From Bacteroidota bacterium (GTDB lineage: Bacteria; Bacteroidota; Ignavibacteria; UBA10030; UBA8401): a stretch of 64,000 nucleotides of DNA. The stretch covers positions 15,001-79,000 of the forward strand of contig JAQCAB010000004.1 in NCBI GenBank assembly GCA_027622375.1, written 5' to 3'. The notes under the pieces are model-generated. The model was not told the origin of the DNA. It did no database searches and saw only the letters and a list, made by a program, of their open reading frames with translations. Shown here piece by piece: positions 23,397-33,847 of the stretch; within the stretch, counting starts at the first letter, position 1; each line of letters starts with the position of its first letter. The position numbers and the translations under genes were made by a program.

Positions 23397-26147
23397 TTAC
23401 TTCAACAACATCATTTTTTTAGATAATGATTTTTCTGAGGTTTCTATTTTATAAATATAAGTTCCGCTTGATAATTTTGATGCGTCAAAATTAATTGAAT
23501 GATATCCAGCTATTAATTCTTCATCTAAAATTAATGAAACCATTCTTCCCAATAAATCATAAATTTTTATTTTTACTTTTCCACTTAAGGGAATTCCAAA
23601 TTTAATTGAAGTTGTTGGATTAAATGGATTTGGATAATTATTTAAGAGTTCTAATTTTTGAGGAATTAAATTATTTTTTGACACATCAGGAGTTGAAACT
23701 AATCCATCAAACCAATTAAATACAGTTGTAATAGCTTTTCTTGAAGTAACCGTTAAATCTGCAACAGAGTCGGGTATTGCTTCAATTCCAAATGACCAGA
23801 ATAAAAGTTTTCCATTTGCAGTTTGATCTTTCCACCAAACACCACCAAATCCTCCCCCTTCAGCATCGTTCCATCTAAAAATTGGCATTGATCCATTATT
23901 ATTTAATTCATCAGGTGAAGTTTGATTGCCAATTGCGCCAATACCACCAAGTGTAATTTGGTTTAAAATTGCTCCCATTCCATTTGATTGAATACCAAAA
24001 AGAGTTCTGCCTAAAAATACATTTTTTGTAAATGAGCTTTTTAATAATCTGCTTGCAAGGGTGCTTTGTCTGATTGAAAAATCTTCAGCAATATTTTGCC
24101 CAGTTATAAAAACATTTCCACCACGTTTAATAAAATTAATTAATGAATCTCCCAACTCTTCTGAAATTATATTAGATTTTTTTATTCCTGAAAATAAAAT
24201 TAAAGTTTTACGATTCTTTAAACTCAAAGTTTGAAAATTTGAATTTGATTGAAGAAGCTCTCCCTCTTTTCCATAATTGGAAAGTATTTGTTCAATTTTT
24301 AAACTAACTGCAGTTGAGTTTGTTGTATCAGCATTTAATAATGCAATTTGTGGGAACCCAACCATTACATTCAGAGTAAATTTAAATACTTCTTCGGAGG
24401 ATGATACTTCAACATTTATATTTTTTCTTCCAGATAAAGAATTTGATTTTACTGAAATAATATTTTTATAAGTTGTCTCTGCAACTGCAAGCCCAGTTAC
24501 ATTTATTTTTAAATTTAAAGTAGTATCAATTAACAAATCATTTGATGCAGAAGTTATTTTAATATTTGCATTTGTTAAATCAACAGGATATGCATTTTCA
24601 ATTATTAATTTTAAATTTCCTTTTTCTCCTGCATCAACTCTTCCATTTTGATTTGATGTATCACTTTCTAAAAGTTCTGCTTTGATTGATGTTAAATATG
24701 GCCGCGTTCCAACATCGAACGATGCAGTCATAATTGTATCTTTATTACTAATTTTACGAATTCCAACATAAGTTTGTTGGTTCAAATAATCTTTGCTGTT
24801 TGGATTTGAATATCCATCAAATGTTCTATTTGTAGATGAACCCGGGAATGGATCTCCAGCATCTCCTCTTACTGTTGAAGTATTTAATTGATGAAGTCCA
24901 TCTGCTTGCTCTAAATCAACAAGTCGGGCATTCTCATTTGCGTTGCTTGTTTTTGAATTATCGATATGCCAAATTAATAATCCCCCTTCAAATAAATATT
25001 TATCATACCCAAATTTTTGTCGGTTTTCGACTAAAAAATATTGACTTCCTGCTGAATTTCCTTTTGGATAAAATTTATAAATTTCGGGATATTTCTCAAC
25101 ATACTTAATTTGCTGATTAGGTATATAAGTAGTTATGATCTTTGGTACAACCCATCCCAATTTTTCTTTGCACCAAGCGCTAAATTGTGCTGGCGTTTCC
25201 TCGTGCCTACCATCTGCACCGTATGAACCACCAGACATAACACACCAATTTCCAACTCCAGCTGATGAATTATCGGTATCATATAAATCAGGTAATCCAA
25301 AAATATGACCAAGTTCATGCGCAAGTACACCAATTGGTTTCATTTGCCCCGAAGAATTATTGCTTCCTCTTAACTCTGGCTGAATGCAATAATCACCATC
25401 AATAATAACTGGTAGTCCATTTAAAGTATCGTTTGTAAGATAACGACCATTGGATAAAATTCGAGATACATCTATTAAAGTATCATTTGAACTTTTACGA
25501 GTTTTTAATCGATCACGAATATTCCAACGATGCGACCAAATATTATCAGCACCAGAAGCAGCATCAGCGCCAGAGTGATAAATTACTAAAAGTGTAACAT
25601 GCGCACCTTCAGCATCAACTTTTGAAACATATTTTCCATAGTCGATATTTTTATCTGCTTGAACCATTAAATCAATTGTAAAATCTCTTCCTCCATAACT
25701 AAGTCCGGCATTTCTTCCTCCATCTTTAACATAATAATCTTGTGTTCGAGGTAGTCGATACCAACCAATACATTCACCAGTCATAATTAATTGATTGTAA
25801 CTATTTTCTTTATAAAAATCAGTTACAGTCCCGGTCGCGTTTGGGCCACTAAATAATAATTGTTGAAATTGAGTAGTGGTATAAATTTCATTTTTATCAG
25901 AATATTTTCCAAATAGTACTGGCGCAAAAACTGTATCAGGTAAGATTTGATCGATTGCACGACTTCCATATTTTTGAATTTGATCATGACGATTTCTAAA
26001 TTTTTCTGCCCAATATCCCCCAGAATAACTTTTTCTGATCTCATCCATTAGCTGCATTTGTTTTGCAGTCGGCTTAATATTTTTTTGAGGAATTATTGCA
26101 AAAAGATTTAAATTAACAAGTAAACAAACGAGTAATACTTTTTTCAT
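23397..26147 (-). CDS. M6-family metalloprotease with T9SS sorting domain
   Basis: A 916-residue secreted zinc protease (immune inhibitor A-like M6 family). Signal peptide about 1-18; catalytic HELGH at 277-281 in AHELGHIFGLPDLYD, with the downstream VMSGGSYG Met-turn region; then beta-sandwich regions and a DUF-like Rossmann segment (VFITGQNI). The C-terminus is a type A T9SS sorting domain: NNYPNPFNPTTSIKF, KIYDLLGRMV, and a final KKMMLLK. A frame extension to a TTG at 26156 exists, but the ATG at 26147 starts an ideal signal peptide and is preferred. It lies just past the PorV operon terminator. Confidence 0.92.
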   Translation of the reverse strand: MKKVLLVCLLVNLNLFAIIPQKNIKPTAKQMQLMDEIRKSYSGGYWAEKFRNRHDQIQKYGSRAIDQILPDTVFAPVLFGKYSDKNEIYTTTQFQQLLFSGPNATGTVTDFYKENSYNQLIMTGECIGWYRLPRTQDYYVKDGGRNAGLSYGGRDFTIDLMVQADKNIDYGKYVSKVDAEGAHVTLLVIYHSGADAASGADNIWSHRWNIRDRLKTRKSSNDTLIDVSRILSNGRYLTNDTLNGLPVIIDGDYCIQPELRGSNNSSGQMKPIGVLAHELGHIFGLPDLYDTDNSSAGVGNWCVMSGGSYGADGRHEETPAQFSAWCKEKLGWVVPKIITTYIPNQQIKYVEKYPEIYKFYPKGNSAGSQYFLVENRQKFGYDKYLFEGGLLIWHIDNSKTSNANENARLVDLEQADGLHQLNTSTVRGDAGDPFPGSSTNRTFDGYSNPNSKDYLNQQTYVGIRKISNKDTIMTASFDVGTRPYLTSIKAELLESDTSNQNGRVDAGEKGNLKLIIENAYPVDLTNANIKITSASNDLLIDTTLNLKINVTGLAVAETTYKNIISVKSNSLSGRKNINVEVSSSEEVFKFTLNVMVGFPQIALLNADTTNSTAVSLKIEQILSNYGKEGELLQSNSNFQTLSLKNRKTLILFSGIKKSNIISEELGDSLINFIKRGGNVFITGQNIAEDFSIRQSTLASRLLKSSFTKNVFLGRTLFGIQSNGMGAILNQITLGGIGAIGNQTSPDELNNNGSMPIFRWNDAEGGGFGGVWWKDQTANGKLLFWSFGIEAIPDSVADLTVTSRKAITTVFNWFDGLVSTPDVSKNNLIPQKLELLNNYPNPFNPTTSIKFGIPLSGKVKIKIYDLLGRMVSLILDEELIAGYHSINFDASKLSSGTYIYKIETSEKSLSKKMMLLK

Positions 26148-26161
26148 AATTTTCAATATAT

Positions 26162-26192
26162 AAAAAAAAGGGGCAATTTTTCAATTGCACCC
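26162..26192 (-). terminator. Rho-independent terminator of the TonB receptor/T9SS/PorV operon
   Basis: On the minus strand GGGTGCAATT pairs with AATTGCCCC around a short loop (26192-26170) and is followed by eight T (26169-26162). It lies about 30 nt beyond the stop of the PorV-like gene and before the M6 protease start. Confidence 0.85.
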
Positions 26193-26222
26193 TCTTAATA
26201 ATTTTTATTTAGTTTTTTTTAA

Positions 26223-27323
26223 TTAAAAAAATACGTTGATACCGATAGTTTGAATTCCACCACTAAATATTTTTGTGGAAGAATAAGAATAATCAATTCC
26301 AACAGCTGTACCACCACCAAGTTCATAATTTATGCCCATGCCCATTGTAAAGCCATAAATATAATCATCAATTTTATCTCCAGTTGAAAGGGTTTTTTGT
26401 GATTTTCCATCTTGCATGCTGTAACCAAATCTACCAGAAACAAAATTTGCATAATCAATTTCAACACCGTAACGGAAAATATCATTTCCAAAATTACTAT
26501 TTTGGAAAGCTGCACAAATTGTTAAATCCATATCAGATATAATATTTGAGTTATAAGCAACGCCTAATTCAAAAGTTGCAGGTAATTCAAAACTTTGCGA
26601 GATGTAACGCACTGGCATTGGTTGAGCATCTTTTTCGGTTGCGTTAGGTGGAGTAATTGTTTCTTCTAAATCACTTCCATTATATGTCATTTCGGGACCA
26701 ATATTTTTTAATACAACTCCAAAACTTAATCCTTTAAAAGTCCCTTCTTGTGTTACATTATAATTTACACCTGCATCAATTGCAAAACCATTAGCAGAAG
26801 TTCGGACAATTTTTTCACTTATATATTTTCCAGTTACTCCAACAGAAATTCTATCTGTTAAAGATTTTGAATAAGTGATTCCCAGTGTATAATAATTTGG
26901 AGAATATGTTGAACCAGTTCCATCTGGGAAATCAGTTGTTGTAACTGGTATCTCACCAAACGAAATTGATTTCAAAGTTAATCCGATTGTTCCAATATCT
27001 CCCGAATTAAATCCAACCCCAAAATAACTTACACCCAAATCTCCCAAATAGTCTGTATTTGAGAAAAATGCTTCTGCGTTTGTTCCGCTAACACCACCTG
27101 CAAGACCAGCTGGATTCCAATGTATTGCATCAATTCCTTTTACAATAGAAATACCAGATCCTGAAAGTGAACTTCCACGACCACCAACGGGTAATAATAA
27201 TTGAGTTGCGCCAGCTTGTCCTCGTTTTGCCGGATTGCCTGCAAAAAGTTGAGCATCAATTAATAAAATTGATAAAATAAAAATTAAAATAAATTTCATT
27301 TTTTTATAAAATAAGTTTTTCAT
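26223..27323 (-). CDS. PorV/PorQ-family outer-membrane protein
   Basis: A 366-residue protein of the PorV/PorQ (UPF0164) family, 14-strand outer-membrane barrels. PorV in T9SS shuttles substrates from the translocon to the attachment complex. Signal peptide about 9-29; the mature start has the family pattern GQAGATQLLLPVGGRGSSLSGSG...GIDAIHWNPAGLA; the end is GIQTIGINVFF. A GGAGG site overlapping the upstream stop sits 8 nt before ATG 27323 and supports that start, giving a gap of 2 nt and likely coupled translation. Many paralogues exist in this lineage; whether this is the general PorV or one dedicated to its neighbour is open. Confidence 0.88.
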   Translation of the reverse strand: MKNLFYKKMKFILIFILSILLIDAQLFAGNPAKRGQAGATQLLLPVGGRGSSLSGSGISIVKGIDAIHWNPAGLAGGVSGTNAEAFFSNTDYLGDLGVSYFGVGFNSGDIGTIGLTLKSISFGEIPVTTTDFPDGTGSTYSPNYYTLGITYSKSLTDRISVGVTGKYISEKIVRTSANGFAIDAGVNYNVTQEGTFKGLSFGVVLKNIGPEMTYNGSDLEETITPPNATEKDAQPMPVRYISQSFELPATFELGVAYNSNIISDMDLTICAAFQNSNFGNDIFRYGVEIDYANFVSGRFGYSMQDGKSQKTLSTGDKIDDYIYGFTMGMGINYELGGGTAVGIDYSYSSTKIFSGGIQTIGINVFF

Positions 27324-27325
27324 TT

Positions 27326-30300
27326 TTATATCCTCCCTGGTCTTTCTTCAGGTTGAATTATAGCTAACTTCATAATCCTCATTCCAACCCCATCAATATT
27401 TATGTGAATTAAATACATTCCACTCGCAACAGGTAATCCATTTTCATTTCTTAAATCCCAATTAGCAGTTCCTTGATCTGTTACATTTGCATCGGTCAAA
27501 GTTTTTACTAACTCACCCGCTAAATTATAAATATTGAGATATAATTTTTGAGCTTTTGGTAACTTTGTAAAAGTTACCATTCGCTGTAATGGACTTGTTT
27601 CTCTATTATTATGTGCAAAATATGGATTTGGATAAACATTTATTTTATTCAACTCGCTTTTCATAGTGTCAAGATTATTTGAAACAGGTGCAGTTGTTAA
27701 AAAATTAAATGTTCTTGATGAATTTAAACGATAGTTTGGTGTAATAATAAATTTATCATTAGCGGAAAAAGTTGAAGCAGTTTCTAATTTTTTAATTTGT
27801 ATAATATAAAGCACATCAAGTTGATCAAGTTCACCGAGCAAATCTAAAGATTGTGTTGAATCATTTTTACTGTTTTTATAAAATGTTGAATTCGGATTGT
27901 AATCACTATTAAAGATTACAAGATATTCTTTTGCACCATCAGTATATGTTGTTGGATCCCATTTACCATCGATACTTCCACGACCAACATAAGTTTTTGG
28001 TGTAGTATTTGTATAAACAGAATCGTTCCATTCCATAAATGCAACATTTAATTGTCTATCTGCAGCGCTTCCATCAGTTTGATCAACTTCAAATGCTTGT
28101 AGATTAATAGTTCTCATATCTTGAAAAGGTGAGCCAACAGCTTTTTTAACTATAAATGATGTAAAAGATGGGTCTGCTACAGGGTTATCCAAAAAGACAT
28201 TCTTTTTTAAATTACCCACGTATCTAAATGCTTGTTGTGTTGCAGAAGTGCTGAACCTGATCTCAACTTTTTTTAGTTGATCAGCTGTAACTGTACTTTG
28301 TTTTCCTGTAAAACTTGCACCACGTGGATATACAACTCCACCATCAAACGCATCAAATCCTCCACCACCAGCACCTCCAAACCAAACATTTGCACTTGGT
28401 TTATATTCAACCCCTTTTGGAGTTTGAGAATCTCGTCTTGGTCCTGCATCTGGATTAATAATTTTAAGAATAAATCCATCACTCAATTTTTGATTATCAC
28501 CACCTGTAAAATCTGTAGAGTTTTTTATTAAAGTATCAAAACCAGAAGTACTTTTTGCTCTTAGTAAATTCCAACCAGTTACATTTGTACCAGTTCCGTT
28601 AAATGTAACTTTATACTTTGAATTTGTTAAAATGGTTGGTTGTAAAATTACTGCTCTTACCGCATCATCACCAGGTCTATCAGTTGATAAAACTTGACCA
28701 ATTGTAGTTGGTATTGAAGTCCCAATTGAAGTTAAAATTGGTGTTATATAATTACGACTACCAACACCAATAATTTCTTTTGCATTTTCTAGTACAAGTG
28801 GTAAAGTTCCTTTAACGCCGGGAGTTTTATTATATGCATAAGTTGTTAATGCAAAGTAATATTTTCTTCCAGGTATTAGTGGGCTTCCTGTTAAATAATC
28901 TTTATCAATTGTTGTATAATATTTTAGTCCGGTATCTTCACCGTAAGCAACTGGTAAGTTATATGGATTCCCTGTAATTGGATCTACTTGATAATCTTCA
29001 ATTAATTTTATGCCATCAACTAAATCGTAAGTAAATAATCTTTTCCATGGACCATTTTGTGATTGGCCTTGATATAAATTATATCCCTGAAATTCATATC
29101 CTTTGAAATTATATTTTTCAGATTTATCAGAATTTGTGCTCCAATCTATGACTATTTTATTCGGGAGTTCAGAAACTTTTACTGTCGGAAGTGGTGGCGC
29201 AGATGGAACTTGAAAATTATCATTAAAAGCATCTTGAGCGATTTTATCAGCTTGCTTTAAAGCAGTTATACTATTTAATCTGTCTGTGCCTTGCCCCATT
29301 ACGATTGCGCCAACAATTTCTTGTGTATCACCTTTTGCAAGTGTAAATGGACCGGTTGAAATCATAATTCTAACATCTTGCGGAGCAAAATTACCAAGTG
29401 GGAAGTTTGCTGGTAAATCACCAGTTCCAGTTACGGGATCGCCCGAGAAAAAGTATTTAATAATCCTTCCAGATGGATGAGTTACCCATTGATGAATTGT
29501 TCCTGCTTTTCCATTTAAATAATCATAAGCTTGTAAAATATAATCAGCATTTTTATCTGGTGGATCTTGTAATTGTGCAAACGTGCCATTGCAATAAACT
29601 ACAAAAGATGATGCTGGTAAATTTATTTTTCCCGGACGTCTTTGTCCATCAAATAATGCAAATGTATCTGTTGGTACATTTATCCAAGGATAAAGTTGTT
29701 TATATCTATCAATCGAAACACTTGGTCCTTGAAAAAAATCAAAACCTACTGCAGGTGGTTTTTCTCCATAACCATGAGTTGTTCCATCATTATTATCACC
29801 ATTATACAAATAACCTAAACTTAAAAGCGTATCAACACCAGGTAAATCGTCATTTGCATCGCCAAGATCAGGATCGCTCCACATTCCAATAAATACAGAA
29901 TCGTAATCGGCATCACTTTTATTTATAATTTTCCACTTCATAAACATAATATTGCCAAGTGCACCGGGCGAGTTAAAACTGAAATATAAATTTTGAATTT
30001 CAACACCCATTGGTTGCGAAGTACTTAAATTTGCATGACTCGATACAACAACATCATTTACAACACTCCACATTTGCTGATCACCATAGTATTTTACTTT
30101 ATCTATTCCTTTATCCCAAGTATTATTTCCATTCATATCAATAAATGGGGCGCCAAGATCTCCGGGCCACTCATTGTAATCAGTATTGTTTGTTGTGCCT
30201 GTTGTATCTTTTTTATTGGTTTTATACAAACGATATTTTGATTCTTTTGCTCGTTTAACAGGATTCGTATCCACATTTGTAGAAGTGTTGTAAGTTTCTA

Positions 30301-30655
30301 AAAGTGGGCCAGGTTGATATTCTGGAGTGTAATCCATATTTGAAATACGAATTTGTTTTGTTGGTCTGTGAACTCCACCCAACCAAATACCTGCTGTAAA
30401 TATAGGAGTTTTACCAGATCCTTTTGGCCATTCAAGACCAGAGTTTCCTGTTTTACGATAATCGCAATAAGGTCCTTCGGATGAAATTGTACAGTTCAAA
30501 GTATTCCCATCCAAAAATTTATATTCACTCACCATCATTTTTGGAGGTGTTGGTAGTGGCTTATTTTTTCCATTATTTTTTACATCACTCAAACCCGAGT
30601 TTGAAATAAATAAGATTGTAAAAACTGATATATAAAATTTTAATTTAAACTTCAT
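27326..30655 (-). CDS. Giant secreted protein with fibronectin-like and T9SS sorting domains
   Basis: An 1109-residue exported protein with a signal peptide (about 1-23). The first 450 residues describe a beta-rich domain rich in Gly, Asp and Trp; a fibronectin type III-like module follows near 490-640 (KIVIDWS..., GYNLYQG, PGRKYYFALTTYAYN). The C-terminal ~100 residues are a T9SS type A signal (INVYPNPYFAHN, LYLNIYNLAGELVKTL, GMYLIHI). Unlike usual domains it ends in a short Pro/Arg tail (ERPGRI). I recognise the architecture as common in Ignavibacteria-like genomes but know no function. It is the middle gene of the TonB receptor operon (gaps 16 and 2 nt). Confidence 0.85.
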   Translation of the reverse strand: MKFKLKFYISVFTILFISNSGLSDVKNNGKNKPLPTPPKMMVSEYKFLDGNTLNCTISSEGPYCDYRKTGNSGLEWPKGSGKTPIFTAGIWLGGVHRPTKQIRISNMDYTPEYQPGPLLETYNTSTNVDTNPVKRAKESKYRLYKTNKKDTTGTTNNTDYNEWPGDLGAPFIDMNGNNTWDKGIDKVKYYGDQQMWSVVNDVVVSSHANLSTSQPMGVEIQNLYFSFNSPGALGNIMFMKWKIINKSDADYDSVFIGMWSDPDLGDANDDLPGVDTLLSLGYLYNGDNNDGTTHGYGEKPPAVGFDFFQGPSVSIDRYKQLYPWINVPTDTFALFDGQRRPGKINLPASSFVVYCNGTFAQLQDPPDKNADYILQAYDYLNGKAGTIHQWVTHPSGRIIKYFFSGDPVTGTGDLPANFPLGNFAPQDVRIMISTGPFTLAKGDTQEIVGAIVMGQGTDRLNSITALKQADKIAQDAFNDNFQVPSAPPLPTVKVSELPNKIVIDWSTNSDKSEKYNFKGYEFQGYNLYQGQSQNGPWKRLFTYDLVDGIKLIEDYQVDPITGNPYNLPVAYGEDTGLKYYTTIDKDYLTGSPLIPGRKYYFALTTYAYNKTPGVKGTLPLVLENAKEIIGVGSRNYITPILTSIGTSIPTTIGQVLSTDRPGDDAVRAVILQPTILTNSKYKVTFNGTGTNVTGWNLLRAKSTSGFDTLIKNSTDFTGGDNQKLSDGFILKIINPDAGPRRDSQTPKGVEYKPSANVWFGGAGGGGFDAFDGGVVYPRGASFTGKQSTVTADQLKKVEIRFSTSATQQAFRYVGNLKKNVFLDNPVADPSFTSFIVKKAVGSPFQDMRTINLQAFEVDQTDGSAADRQLNVAFMEWNDSVYTNTTPKTYVGRGSIDGKWDPTTYTDGAKEYLVIFNSDYNPNSTFYKNSKNDSTQSLDLLGELDQLDVLYIIQIKKLETASTFSANDKFIITPNYRLNSSRTFNFLTTAPVSNNLDTMKSELNKINVYPNPYFAHNNRETSPLQRMVTFTKLPKAQKLYLNIYNLAGELVKTLTDANVTDQGTANWDLRNENGLPVASGMYLIHINIDGVGMRIMKLAIIQPEERPGRI

Positions 30656-30671
30656 AATATTTCCTTTTCAA

Positions 30672-33600
30672 TTAAAAATTAACTTGTAAACCAAGTTTAA
30701 CGATACGTGGCGAACCATAATTGCCTGGCGAATCTTGTAGATAATTATATAACTTAACTGCATCTTCACCATTTGTTTCGGCCCACGATTTTCCTGATTC
30801 TGTTGTAAACCAACCATCATCTACCGATGAACCAGTACCTGAATAAACTGCAACAAGATTTTTTTGGTTTAATAAATTTTGTACTATCATATAAATATTC
30901 ATTTTAAGTTGATTGTAGATTGTAAATGATTTATCAACTCTCAAATCAATTGTTGAGCTCCATGGACCTTGTGATGTATTTAAATTTTCATATGCAACTG
31001 GTGCATTTGTTCCTGAAAAAGAAAATGCTCCATCAATTTGGCTACGAGTAAATGGAAATCCACTTGAGAAATAATAAAGCGCATTTACTCCAAAATTTGA
31101 AAGTGGACGCATTCCCATAAATTCAGGACCTTCATCATTTTCAAAACGGTAATCTAAATTTACATTTCCGATATGTGTTCTATCAAAATCAGTTGGGGCA
31201 GGGATTACCGGGAAGTAGGGTTGATTGTTAAATGAGTTATCTTGCCATGCAATATTAAAATGAGATGAACTACTTGAACCAGTTGATGTTGCGCGAGAGA
31301 AAGTGTAAGATCCACGCAAAGCTAATCTGTTAATTCGTCTTAAAGTAAAATCTAAACTAAATCCTTTTGAAGTTCCAAAATCTCCATTTTCGGTTGCGAA
31401 GAATGAAGTTGTTTGCGAACCTGGTGCTGGGAAAATTACACGAATTACATGAAGGTCTTTTGTATCCTTATAATAGAATGTAACATTTGTTGAAGCAACA
31501 TCACCGAATTGTTGTTGAAAACCAACTTCGTATTGTGTTGTGCGTTCTGGTTTTAAATTCGGGTTTGGAAATCTGCGAGCATATCCACCTTGAAAATATT
31601 GTGCAGCTGTAGTTCGTGGATCATAATAATCGCCAAGCCGACCTTGTTGTATATATTTTCCATAGGTTGCATGGAAAACTGTTTTATCAGTAACGGGGAA
31701 AGAAAAACCAAATCGCGGGCTAAATTGTTCAAAAATTTCTTGATCTTGATAAGAACTATCAGCAACAATTTTTATTCCACCCAAATCATCAATACCAATT
31801 TTATCTAATTGTTTGTATTGTTTAGATCCGGGATCAAGTAAATCGTATCGCAAACCTAAATTCATAATTAAATCTTCAAACTCAAATTTATTTTGTAAGT
31901 ATAAAGCAGTGTAACCTGGTTTACGAGGTCCCTCTAAATCAGATAATTCTATTTTATCTTTATCTTCGTAACTGCCATCTGCTTTACGAAGTTTATCTGT
32001 AATTGAACCGCCATTAAATTCTTTTCCCCAAATATCATATCCATAAAATGAAACACCAACTTGATTATAAATAAACCAATCGGTTGCAGTTGGATATTGT
32101 TTACGCATTGAATATAAATTTAAAGCACTGATTGAGTATGTACGAATTGTGTAACCAATTTTTTCTGCACCAAGTTTTAATTCCCAATTGTTATTTATTT
32201 GATTCACATAATCTAATTTTCCAGTTATTTGCGATCTTACAATTTTGGAATAACCTGAGGGAATAGTTCCTGGCCATGAACCAGAAAATGAATTATATGA
32301 AAAGCTTGATGGATTGCGCGATGGTCCAATTAAAACTTCATTACCAGCTAAGTTTGGATTACCGTAGTTTTCAACATTATCCATCCAAATTGGGTCGCCT
32401 GATTCGGAGTTGAAACTATAACTATTAAGTTTTAAAGTTATAAACGAACTTGGGTTTATCAAATATGTTAAGTTACTATATAAAGTTTGGTCGGTTGAAG
32501 TTGATTTTGAAGTTCTAACATCATTACCGGCGTATCTTATTACTGATAAACTTTGTCCATATCCACCCCAACCTAAATTATTATTATATGAACCACCTAA
32601 TTTTAAATTAATATTTCCGAGGTCAACAAAAACATTTCCTTGCAAAGCCCAAGAATCTTGGCTAACACCACCTCGCGATCTTCCTCCATCATATTTAGAT
32701 TTGTTTAGTAAATTTGTTAAAAGAGTTCTGTTTCCACTTTTGCCAGTGGCAACAGGAGTAACACCACCGACAGAATCTTGATTTGTAACAATAAAATCTG
32801 CACCAATAATTTTAGTGCTATCAAATGTGATAGGGAAATTTATTCCATCCATAAAACTTGCACCTGAGCGATTAAAAATTCTTTGACCAGCTACAAAAAA
32901 ACGAATTGCATTACTTGTAATTGGTCCACCAATCGTCATTGCATATTCATTTAACCCATAAGAATATGCACCAAGTCTTTTTGATTCAGAATTTCCAAAG
33001 TCATCCGAAATAATTTCAAAACTTCCGTTGTAAGATGAAGCTCCTATACGTGTTGAAGTATTAACAACTCCAGACATTGCATTTCCATACTCTGCAGACA
33101 TGCCACCAATTTGAGATTGAACTTCTTCAATTGCATTACTTATAACATTTGCTGTCATTCTTCCGTTGATAGGATTATTAACAAGCACACCATCAACATA
33201 ATATGCAGTTTCTTCTGCACGACCACCGCGAACATAAAAATCACCACCTTGACTAACTACACCACTTGAAAGAGCAAAAACTTGAGTTACACCTCTTATT
33301 GGCATCTGTTGTAAAGCATCACCTGTAACAATTGCAATAGTATTTGTTTTACTTTTATTTATAAGTGGAGCTTCGCGAGTGATAATTACAGGACCAAGTT
33401 GAACAGCTTCGGATATAATTTTAAAATCTACACTCGTTGTCAAATCAACACTGACTTGAACGTTTGCAATACTTGTTGGCGCGTATCCAATAAAAGTTGC
33501 TTTTATAATATAAGTACCAGCGGGAATATTTAAAATAATGTACTGTCCGTCAACATCTGTAGTTGCGCCCCAAGAAGTTCCTTCAACAATAACAATCGCT

Positions 33601-33725
33601 GAAGGTAATGCTTCACCAGTTTGTGAATCAACAACTTTACCTCTGATTTTACCGGTGGGACCAGCTATTAAAAAAATAAAAGTTAAAAAAGTTAACGAAA
33701 GCACTTTTAAAGTGCGATTAATCAT
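30672..33725 (-). CDS. TonB-dependent receptor with carboxypeptidase-regulatory-like domain
   Basis: A 1017-residue outer-membrane receptor. After a signal peptide (about 1-24) comes a CarboxypepD_reg-like beta domain (GKIRGKVVDSQTGEALPSA), then a plug domain (about 105-215, with FYVRGGRAEETAYYVDGV) and a C-terminal 22-strand barrel ending VKLGLQVNF. Such receptors import bulky substrates using TonB/ExbBD energy. An in-frame ATG exists at 33737, but GGAGG lies 5 nt before the ATG at 33725, which also starts a cleaner signal peptide, so 33725 is chosen. It leads the three-gene operon. No SusD partner is present; the giant T9SS protein takes that position. Confidence 0.92.
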   Translation of the reverse strand: MINRTLKVLSLTFLTFIFLIAGPTGKIRGKVVDSQTGEALPSAIVIVEGTSWGATTDVDGQYIILNIPAGTYIIKATFIGYAPTSIANVQVSVDLTTSVDFKIISEAVQLGPVIITREAPLINKSKTNTIAIVTGDALQQMPIRGVTQVFALSSGVVSQGGDFYVRGGRAEETAYYVDGVLVNNPINGRMTANVISNAIEEVQSQIGGMSAEYGNAMSGVVNTSTRIGASSYNGSFEIISDDFGNSESKRLGAYSYGLNEYAMTIGGPITSNAIRFFVAGQRIFNRSGASFMDGINFPITFDSTKIIGADFIVTNQDSVGGVTPVATGKSGNRTLLTNLLNKSKYDGGRSRGGVSQDSWALQGNVFVDLGNINLKLGGSYNNNLGWGGYGQSLSVIRYAGNDVRTSKSTSTDQTLYSNLTYLINPSSFITLKLNSYSFNSESGDPIWMDNVENYGNPNLAGNEVLIGPSRNPSSFSYNSFSGSWPGTIPSGYSKIVRSQITGKLDYVNQINNNWELKLGAEKIGYTIRTYSISALNLYSMRKQYPTATDWFIYNQVGVSFYGYDIWGKEFNGGSITDKLRKADGSYEDKDKIELSDLEGPRKPGYTALYLQNKFEFEDLIMNLGLRYDLLDPGSKQYKQLDKIGIDDLGGIKIVADSSYQDQEIFEQFSPRFGFSFPVTDKTVFHATYGKYIQQGRLGDYYDPRTTAAQYFQGGYARRFPNPNLKPERTTQYEVGFQQQFGDVASTNVTFYYKDTKDLHVIRVIFPAPGSQTTSFFATENGDFGTSKGFSLDFTLRRINRLALRGSYTFSRATSTGSSSSSHFNIAWQDNSFNNQPYFPVIPAPTDFDRTHIGNVNLDYRFENDEGPEFMGMRPLSNFGVNALYYFSSGFPFTRSQIDGAFSFSGTNAPVAYENLNTSQGPWSSTIDLRVDKSFTIYNQLKMNIYMIVQNLLNQKNLVAVYSGTGSSVDDGWFTTESGKSWAETNGEDAVKLYNYLQDSPGNYGSPRIVKLGLQVNF

Positions 33726-33775: not shown

Positions 33776-33814
33776 TTAAAACAATCGAAGCCCTCGGAAA
33801 ATCCGAAGGCTTCG
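33776..33814 (-). terminator. Terminator of the 614-residue T9SS protein gene
   Basis: A 13-bp stem with one wobble (33786-33798 with 33802-33814) and a 3-nt loop lies 34 nt past the stop of the gene at 33848-35692. On the minus strand it is followed by TTGTTTTAAG. It insulates that gene from the TonB receptor operon. Confidence 0.75.
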
Positions 33815-33847
33815 AAGTTTGAAATTTTTATAAAGTTCCCTTTCGGA

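What the first reader, a model, noticed from the sequence alone, without database searches (positions are those of the whole stretch)
26162..33725. TonB receptor, giant T9SS protein and PorV-like protein form one coupled operon
The three genes have gaps of 16 and 2 nt; the PorV-like Shine-Dalgarno overlaps the stop of the T9SS protein, and a strong terminator closes the unit. There is no SusD. A TonB receptor paired with a T9SS-anchored surface protein and a dedicated PorV-type shuttle would be a SusCD-like surface capture system built from other parts. I know of repeated loci like this in Ignavibacteria-like genomes but of no function.
Basis: partly seen in the sequence, partly recalled or inferred. 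Interest (0 to 1): 0.6.

Follow-up and report, generated by a model that had tools for sequence, protein, structure and literature searches.

The report
Conserved receptor–surface protein–docking barrel operon
Three neighbouring genes for a TonB-powered outer-membrane receptor, a large protein exported to the cell surface, and a PorV-like barrel that probably holds that protein in place form an operon found again and again, in the same order, across Ignavibacteria-like bacteria and related phyla, and they look like an undescribed surface machine that may do the job SusCD pairs do in Bacteroides.

Summary
On the minus strand, a TonB-dependent receptor (T), an 1109-aa type-9-secreted protein (M) and a PorV-family barrel (V) have gaps of 16 and 2 nt. 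Strong terminators bound the unit on both sides. It is not chance. This 1.73-Mb genome has four such trios and a fifth, rearranged set. In the order, class and neighbouring phyla, 91 of 129 full-length M homologues have T directly upstream and V directly downstream on the same strand. In other classes of the phylum, 19 of 20 loci do. The T, M and V trees agree.

V is not the housekeeping PorV or PorQ, which are encoded elsewhere with PorU and SprA. No SusD was found in the genome. M's body matches no Pfam family. Its N-domain folds with high confidence and weakly resembles the β-super-sandwich of glycoside phosphorylases and hydrolases. Its C-terminal domain is an atypical Type A CTD, nearest to the uncleaved CTDs of PorZ and PorU.

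I propose that M is exported by the T9SS and kept by its own V as a permanent docking barrel beside T, as a lipoprotein-free counterpart of SusD on SusC. Order, linkage, CTD type and absence of SusD are shown. Complex formation, retention and ligand are inferred. I found no published description.

The parts
30672..33725 (-). T: TonB-dependent receptor, 1017 aa, with CarboxypepD_reg-like domain (about 33384-33647) and Plug domain (about 33066-33350)
   Evidence: Pfam Plug 1.2e-07, barrel 6.9e-23, CarbopepD_reg_2 1.3e-17; SusC model TIGR04056 only 59 of 368 bits
27326..30655 (-). M: 1109-aa Sec/T9SS-exported surface protein, body without a Pfam family
   Evidence: Pfam/NCBIfam match only the C-terminal ~100 aa; AlphaFold2 mean pLDDT 82.6
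29192..30538 (-). M N-terminal globular domain (residues 40-488), super-sandwich-like, conserved acidic residues D201, D261, D263, D290
   Evidence: pLDDT 95.2, pTM 0.94; Foldseek hits GH116/GH94/GH149 E 5e-06 to 8e-04, TMq 0.30-0.40; invariant columns
27326..27658 (-). M C-terminal T9SS sorting domain, atypical Type A, PorZ/PorU-like, with extra beta5-beta6 insertion and 9-residue tail
   Evidence: NF052228 PorZ 3.8e-07 against TIGR04183 5.1e-05; PDB hits 5m11 PorZ and 6za2 PorU only; alignment with 29 cargo CTDs of the same genome
26223..27323 (-). V: PorV/PorQ-family outer-membrane barrel, neither PorV nor PorQ itself
   Evidence: NF033709 150 bits (cut-off 90); PorV equivalog 61.7/250 and PorQ 76.4/220 not met
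27332..27338 (-). Shine-Dalgarno of V (AGGGAGG) inside the last codons of M
   Evidence: sequence
26166..26196 (-). intrinsic terminator closing the unit
   Evidence: -15.4 kcal/mol, z -4.5
33785..33815 (-). intrinsic terminator of the upstream gene, isolating the unit
   Evidence: 14-pair stem, -26.1 kcal/mol, z -5.8

Best explanation
The operon encodes one outer-membrane surface complex. M is made with a Sec signal peptide, crosses the outer membrane through the common T9SS translocon SprA, and is collected at the exit by its own barrel V rather than by the housekeeping PorV. Unlike ordinary Type A cargo, M is not cut and passed on: its PorZ/PorU-like CTD stays bound to V, which serves as a permanent docking barrel. 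The M-V unit sits beside or over the TonB-dependent receptor T. M's large N-domain binds or presents a ligand, possibly a glycan or glycoconjugate, which T imports using TonB energy, the role that a SusD lipoprotein plays for SusC. Shown: gene order, operon limits, conservation, shared phylogenetic history, absence of SusD, separate housekeeping PorV/PorQ/PorU/SprA, atypical CTD. Inferred: physical complex, retention without cleavage, uptake role. Guess: carbohydrate ligand.
For: T>M>V order: 91/129 full-length Ms, median gaps 29 and 17 nt, reverse neighbours 1 and 1; 19 of 20 loci in other classes of the phylum, the twentieth cut by its contig end; hits in Ignavibacteria, Neomarinimicrobiota, Calditrichota, KSB1, Handelsmanbacteria. 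Four trios in this 1.73-Mb genome, plus a fifth set M5...T5-V5. Trees agree: T-M rho 0.80, T-V 0.73, M-V 0.70 against permutation maxima of 0.18 to 0.27. V is dedicated: true PorV (276/250 bits) beside PorU (957/420), PorQ (241/220) and SprA lie elsewhere. CTD: among 48 CTD matches in the genome the four trio Ms rank 39, 44, 47 and 48 by Type A score, exact p 2.7e-4; 0 of 91 trio Ms has the cargo-type C-terminal end, 3 of 33 Ms without V have it. PorU/PorZ CTDs are not removed and share an extra hairpin after strand 5 (PMC11285876); PorQ anchors PorZ and PorV anchors PorU (PMC5562754). Precedent for cognate barrel plus cargo pairs encoded side by side: Type B CTD/SprF (PMC12618676); for a FadL-family barrel holding a large surface protein beside a main barrel: BamG-BamH-BamA (PMC12611786). 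No SusD; M has no lipobox. ExbD present. N-domain fold resembles sugar-enzyme super-sandwiches.
Against: No direct evidence for a T-M-V complex, for CTD retention or for any ligand. Fold similarity is weak (TMq 0.40 at most, rmsd about 10 A). The within-genome swap test, which controls for species history, is only suggestive (observed pairing ranks 9 to 58 of 256). About a quarter of full-length Ms have no V downstream, and tandem M arrays without T or V exist (L169, L197), so M can do without a local partner. The hairpin insertion also occurs in one ordinary cargo CTD here (L229), and PMC11285876 found it not functionally relevant in P. gingivalis. Flanking genes (serA, NHL-repeat protein, ssb, PIG-L, GWxTD) do not point to a nutrient.
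Confidence: 0.5

Rival explanations
1. V is a second, cargo-dedicated export shuttle only. M is secreted through SprA with V, then cleaved by PorU and released or attached to LPS; T is co-transcribed because it serves the same condition but does not touch M.
For: PorV itself works this way for Type A cargo (PMC5562754, PMC10994853); M-V pairs without T exist (L097, L102, L103).
Against: T is directly upstream in 95 of 129 cases, as often as V is downstream (96), and T-M tree agreement is as high as M-V; M's CTD is closer to the uncleaved PorZ/PorU type.
Confidence: 0.25
2. The trio is an envelope-building or scaffold complex rather than an uptake system: T acts as a structural or assembly barrel, V as the docking barrel and M as an extracellular canopy or adhesive layer, in the manner of the Bacteroidota BAM complex.
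For: BamA-BamG-BamH has the same set of part types (main barrel, FadL-family barrel, large surface protein; PMC12611786); the window trio lies among housekeeping genes with conserved synteny (serA upstream, NHL and ssb downstream); M's Ig-like chain is typical of surface layers.
Against: T keeps a Plug domain and a conserved segment just before it (V.ivAerPLi.k..TN) where TonB boxes lie; several diverged paralogous trios per genome suggest different ligands rather than one essential scaffold.
Confidence: 0.15
3. An ordinary SusCD locus with a diverged SusC and SusD.
For: T has the CarboxypepD_reg plus Plug layout of SusC and a weak TIGR04056 match.
Against: SusC model 59 of 368 bits; no SusD in the genome; M has a CTD and no lipobox; the SusCD pair has no PorV-family partner.
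Confidence: 0.03
4. Chance or neutral adjacency preserved by slow rearrangement.
For: Part of the trio set is clearly vertically inherited with its flanks.
Against: The same order recurs in several paralogous trios per genome, in different genomic settings, across families and phyla.
Confidence: 0.02

Closest known systems
SusCD / RagAB TonB-dependent uptake systems
   Same: TonB-dependent barrel with N-terminal CarboxypepD_reg domain encoded with a large surface protein; many diverged paralogous loci per genome
   Different: surface partner is T9SS-exported with a CTD, not a SusD lipoprotein; a PorV-family barrel is part of the unit; SusC score far below cut-off; no SusD in the genome
Type B CTD adhesin + cognate PorP/SprF shuttle pairs (SprB-SprF, Fjoh_3952-3951; PMC12618676)
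   Same: exported CTD protein followed directly by the gene for its own outer-membrane barrel, several pairs per genome besides the common PorV
   Different: CTD here is Type A-like and the barrel is PorV/PorQ family, not PorP/SprF; a TonB-dependent receptor leads the operon
PorU-PorV and PorZ-PorQ attachment sub-complexes (PMC5562754)
   Same: uncleaved CTD protein stably held by a PorV-family barrel; M's CTD is nearest to PorZ and PorU
   Different: V is neither PorV nor PorQ by curated cut-offs, M has no sortase or PorZ body, and a TonB receptor is included; real PorU-PorV and PorQ genes exist elsewhere in the genome
BamA-BamG-BamH of the Bacteroidota BAM complex (PMC12611786)
   Same: main barrel, FadL-family barrel and large surface protein working together
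   Different: different families; BamH is a lipoprotein; T is a TonB-dependent receptor

Membership tests
SusCD | SusC/RagA family barrel (TIGR04056 above cut-off) | tested here: not met
   59.1 of 368.25 bits
SusCD | SusD/RagB lipoprotein partner | tested here: not met
   no PF07980 match in the genome, control positive; M has no lipobox and no SusD fold hit
SusCD | TonB-dependent import by a lidded complex | not testable with these tools
   needs structure or uptake assay
TonB-dependent receptor | Plug plus beta-barrel domains above cut-off | tested here: met
   Plug 32.6/23.9, barrel 82.6/27 bits
T9SS Type A substrate | signal peptide and C-terminal sorting domain TIGR04183 | tested here: met
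   23.2 of 23 bits, borderline; Pfam PF18962 19 of 27 not met; CTD-like strands at the C-terminus of the model
T9SS Type A substrate | cleavage of the CTD after export through the general PorV | not testable with these tools
   needs mass spectrometry and deletion strains
PorV (general shuttle) | NF033710 equivalog cut-off and linkage to PorU | tested here: not met
   61.7 of 250 bits; the true PorV is on contig C8 next to PorU
PorQ | NF033711 equivalog cut-off | tested here: not met
   76.4 of 220 bits; the true PorQ is on contig C32
PorV/PorQ family | NF033709 subfamily cut-off | tested here: met
   150.2 of 90 bits
cognate shuttle-cargo pair (SprF type) | cargo and barrel genes adjacent, barrel downstream | tested here: met
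   96 of 129 Ms
cognate shuttle-cargo pair (SprF type) | Type B CTD and PorP/SprF barrel | tested here: not met
   M1 matched no Type B CTD model and V1 no PorP/SprF model at E 0.01

The most novel reading that the evidence does not exclude
A new class of TonB-dependent surface uptake complex, widespread in Ignavibacteria, Neomarinimicrobiota, Calditrichota and allied phyla, in which a T9SS-exported receptor held by its own PorV-family docking barrel replaces the SusD lipoprotein; this would join type 9 secretion and TonB-dependent import in one machine.
Probability: 0.4. Interest if true: 0.85.

Novelty: new variant of a known kind. Interest (0 to 1): 0.62.

Why it matters
Many Ignavibacteria, Neomarinimicrobiota and Calditrichota genomes carry several copies of this unit, yet M's body has no Pfam family and the unit has no name or function that I could find. 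If right, it shows how bacteria without SusD build large surface capture complexes. It would extend cognate CTD-barrel pairing from Type B/SprF to Type A/PorV-like proteins, against the present statement that all Type A CTDs use one PorV (PMC12618676). The order and the pairing make clear experimental predictions.

Tried and rejected
SusCD membership: rejected. V as the general PorV or as PorQ: rejected. M as an enzyme: no family match, and only a catalytically incomplete, weak super-sandwich resemblance. Function from neighbours: clustering flanking genes of 91 trios gave serA, ssb, NHL-repeat, PIG-L-like and GWxTD proteins, none of which names a substrate. Tree-swap test controlling for species: suggestive only. 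Phage families: no PHROGs match. Literature: no paper found describing the T-M-V arrangement; one planned query failed on syntax. C10:118788, a weak CTD match, is a WD40-type amidohydrolase and not a CTD protein.
Full report
1. What is there. On the minus strand of the window lie, in transcription order, a TonB-dependent receptor (T, 33725-30672), an 1109-aa protein with a T9SS C-terminal domain (M, 30655-27326) and a PorV-family barrel (V, 27323-26223). Gaps are 16 and 2 nt. The Shine-Dalgarno of V (AGGGAGG, 27338-27332) sits in the last codons of M, 3 nt before its stop. Terminators bound the unit on both sides: 33815-33785 (-26.1 kcal/mol, z -5.8) and about 26196-26166 (-15.4 kcal/mol, z -4.5).

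2. Not chance. The genome (1.73 Mb) has 12 Plug-domain matches and 14 PorV-family match segments. All four trio Ms have T directly upstream and V directly downstream, with gaps of 16/2, 1/2, 3/0 and 11/-4 nt. A fifth set is rearranged (M5, two further genes, T5, V5). All 41 genomes of the order sample have M homologues, as do 92 of 247 genomes sampled across the phylum. In loci fetched because of M alone, 91 of 129 distinct full-length Ms have T upstream and V downstream on the same strand; T is upstream in 95, V downstream in 96, and the opposite placement occurs once each. Of 20 further loci from other classes of the phylum, 19 show T-M-V, and in the twentieth the contig ends at M. Named records include Ignavibacteria, Neomarinimicrobiota, Calditrichota, KSB1 and Handelsmanbacteria. 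The window trio itself is old: relatives have the same flanks, serA upstream and an NHL-repeat protein plus ssb downstream.

3. Shared history. Over 75 trios, patristic distances of T, M-body, M-CTD and V trees correlate at rho 0.70 to 0.85, against permutation maxima of 0.18 to 0.27. Much of this is species history. When partners are swapped between paralogous trios of one genome, the true pairing ranks 34 (T-M), 21 (T-V) and 9 (M-V) of 256, which is suggestive, not conclusive. In this genome the trios fall into two sub-types, (1,2) and (3,4), for all three genes.

4. V is dedicated. The genome has its own PorV (276 bits, cut-off 250) next to PorU (957 bits, cut-off 420), PorQ (241, cut-off 220) and SprA on other contigs. 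V of the window reaches only 62 and 76 bits with the PorV and PorQ models but 150 with the family model.

5. M. The body matches no Pfam, NCBIfam or PHROGs family. AlphaFold2 gives pLDDT 82.6 for the whole chain and 95.2, pTM 0.94, for the N-domain, residues 40-488. The N-domain's best PDB matches are nearly all GH116/GH94/GH149-type sugar enzymes at E 5e-06 to 8e-04 but TM-score of 0.40 or less: a distant super-sandwich resemblance, without the catalytic barrel. A chain of Ig-like domains follows (inferred from the model's strands and the complement-like hits), then the CTD. The CTD is atypical: it matches PorZ (3.8e-07) better than TIGR04183 (5.1e-05), the only PDB sequence hits of the family profile are PorZ and PorU, and in this genome the four trio Ms rank 39, 44, 47 and 48 of 48 by Type A score (p 2.7e-4; the four are paralogues, so not independent). 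Compared with cargo CTDs, M has an insertion between the fifth and sixth strands and, in M1 and M2, a tail beyond the last strand. None of 91 trio Ms ends like a cargo CTD; 3 of 33 Ms without V do (the pattern used recognises 20 of 29 known cargo CTDs of this genome). PorU and PorZ CTDs are not cleaved and share an extra hairpin at that place (PMC11285876), and PorQ/PorV hold them on the surface (PMC5562754).

6. T. Plug and barrel are intact, and a segment just before the plug (V.ivAerPLi.k..TN) is conserved across trios, at the place where TonB boxes lie. ExbD is encoded. The SusC model is far below cut-off and no SusD was found.

7. Mechanism. Most likely M is exported through SprA, collected by V and kept there by an uncleaved CTD, next to T, which imports what M captures. 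Steps shown: linkage, order, conservation, dedicated V, CTD type, no SusD. Steps inferred: complex, retention, uptake. The sugar ligand is a guess. Precedents for the pieces: CTD cargo with a cognate barrel gene next door (Type B/SprF, PMC12618676), uncleaved CTD proteins on PorV-family barrels, and a FadL-family barrel holding a surface protein beside a main barrel (BamG-BamH-BamA, PMC12611786). Rivals are a shuttle-only V with an unconnected T, and a structural role.

8. Verdict. The unit is a new variant assembled from known families; no description was found in the searched open-access literature, which does not cover subscription journals or preprints.

Noticed in passing
G000 contig C14, L281:5892-8021 and L025:5697-9488: A fifth set: a 709-aa M-like protein with a similar CTD, a 681-aa CTD protein, a 545-aa likely lipoprotein, TonB receptor, PorV-family barrel and a 410-aa NHL-type protein in a row.
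   Followed up: partly
L169:683-13960 and L197: Tandem arrays of three or four M homologues with no T or V beside them, in a Neomarinimicrobiota and a KSB1 genome.
   Followed up: no
L129:8634-10931, L153:11032-13452, L198:11290-13500: A secreted ~740-800-aa protein that looks like a PIG-L/LmbE-type deacetylase (by eye, not by profile) lies directly downstream of V in about 21 of 91 trios; another 21 have a GWxTD-like protein downstream.
   Followed up: partly
L028:7903-9315 (own genome C30): A 470-aa PorV-family protein with a BamG-model match (48.9 of 250 bits), 4-nt overlap with a CTD protein gene: a possible further barrel-cargo pair.
   Followed up: no
L027:9058-10895 (own genome C38): Two or three PorV-family fragments, possibly one frameshifted gene, next to a 516-aa protein with a divergent CTD inside a glycosyltransferase cluster.
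   Followed up: no
window 23397-26156: Downstream M6-family metalloprotease with an ordinary Type A CTD; a CTD protein of like size (928 aa) follows the trio in the sister species (L063).
   Followed up: partly
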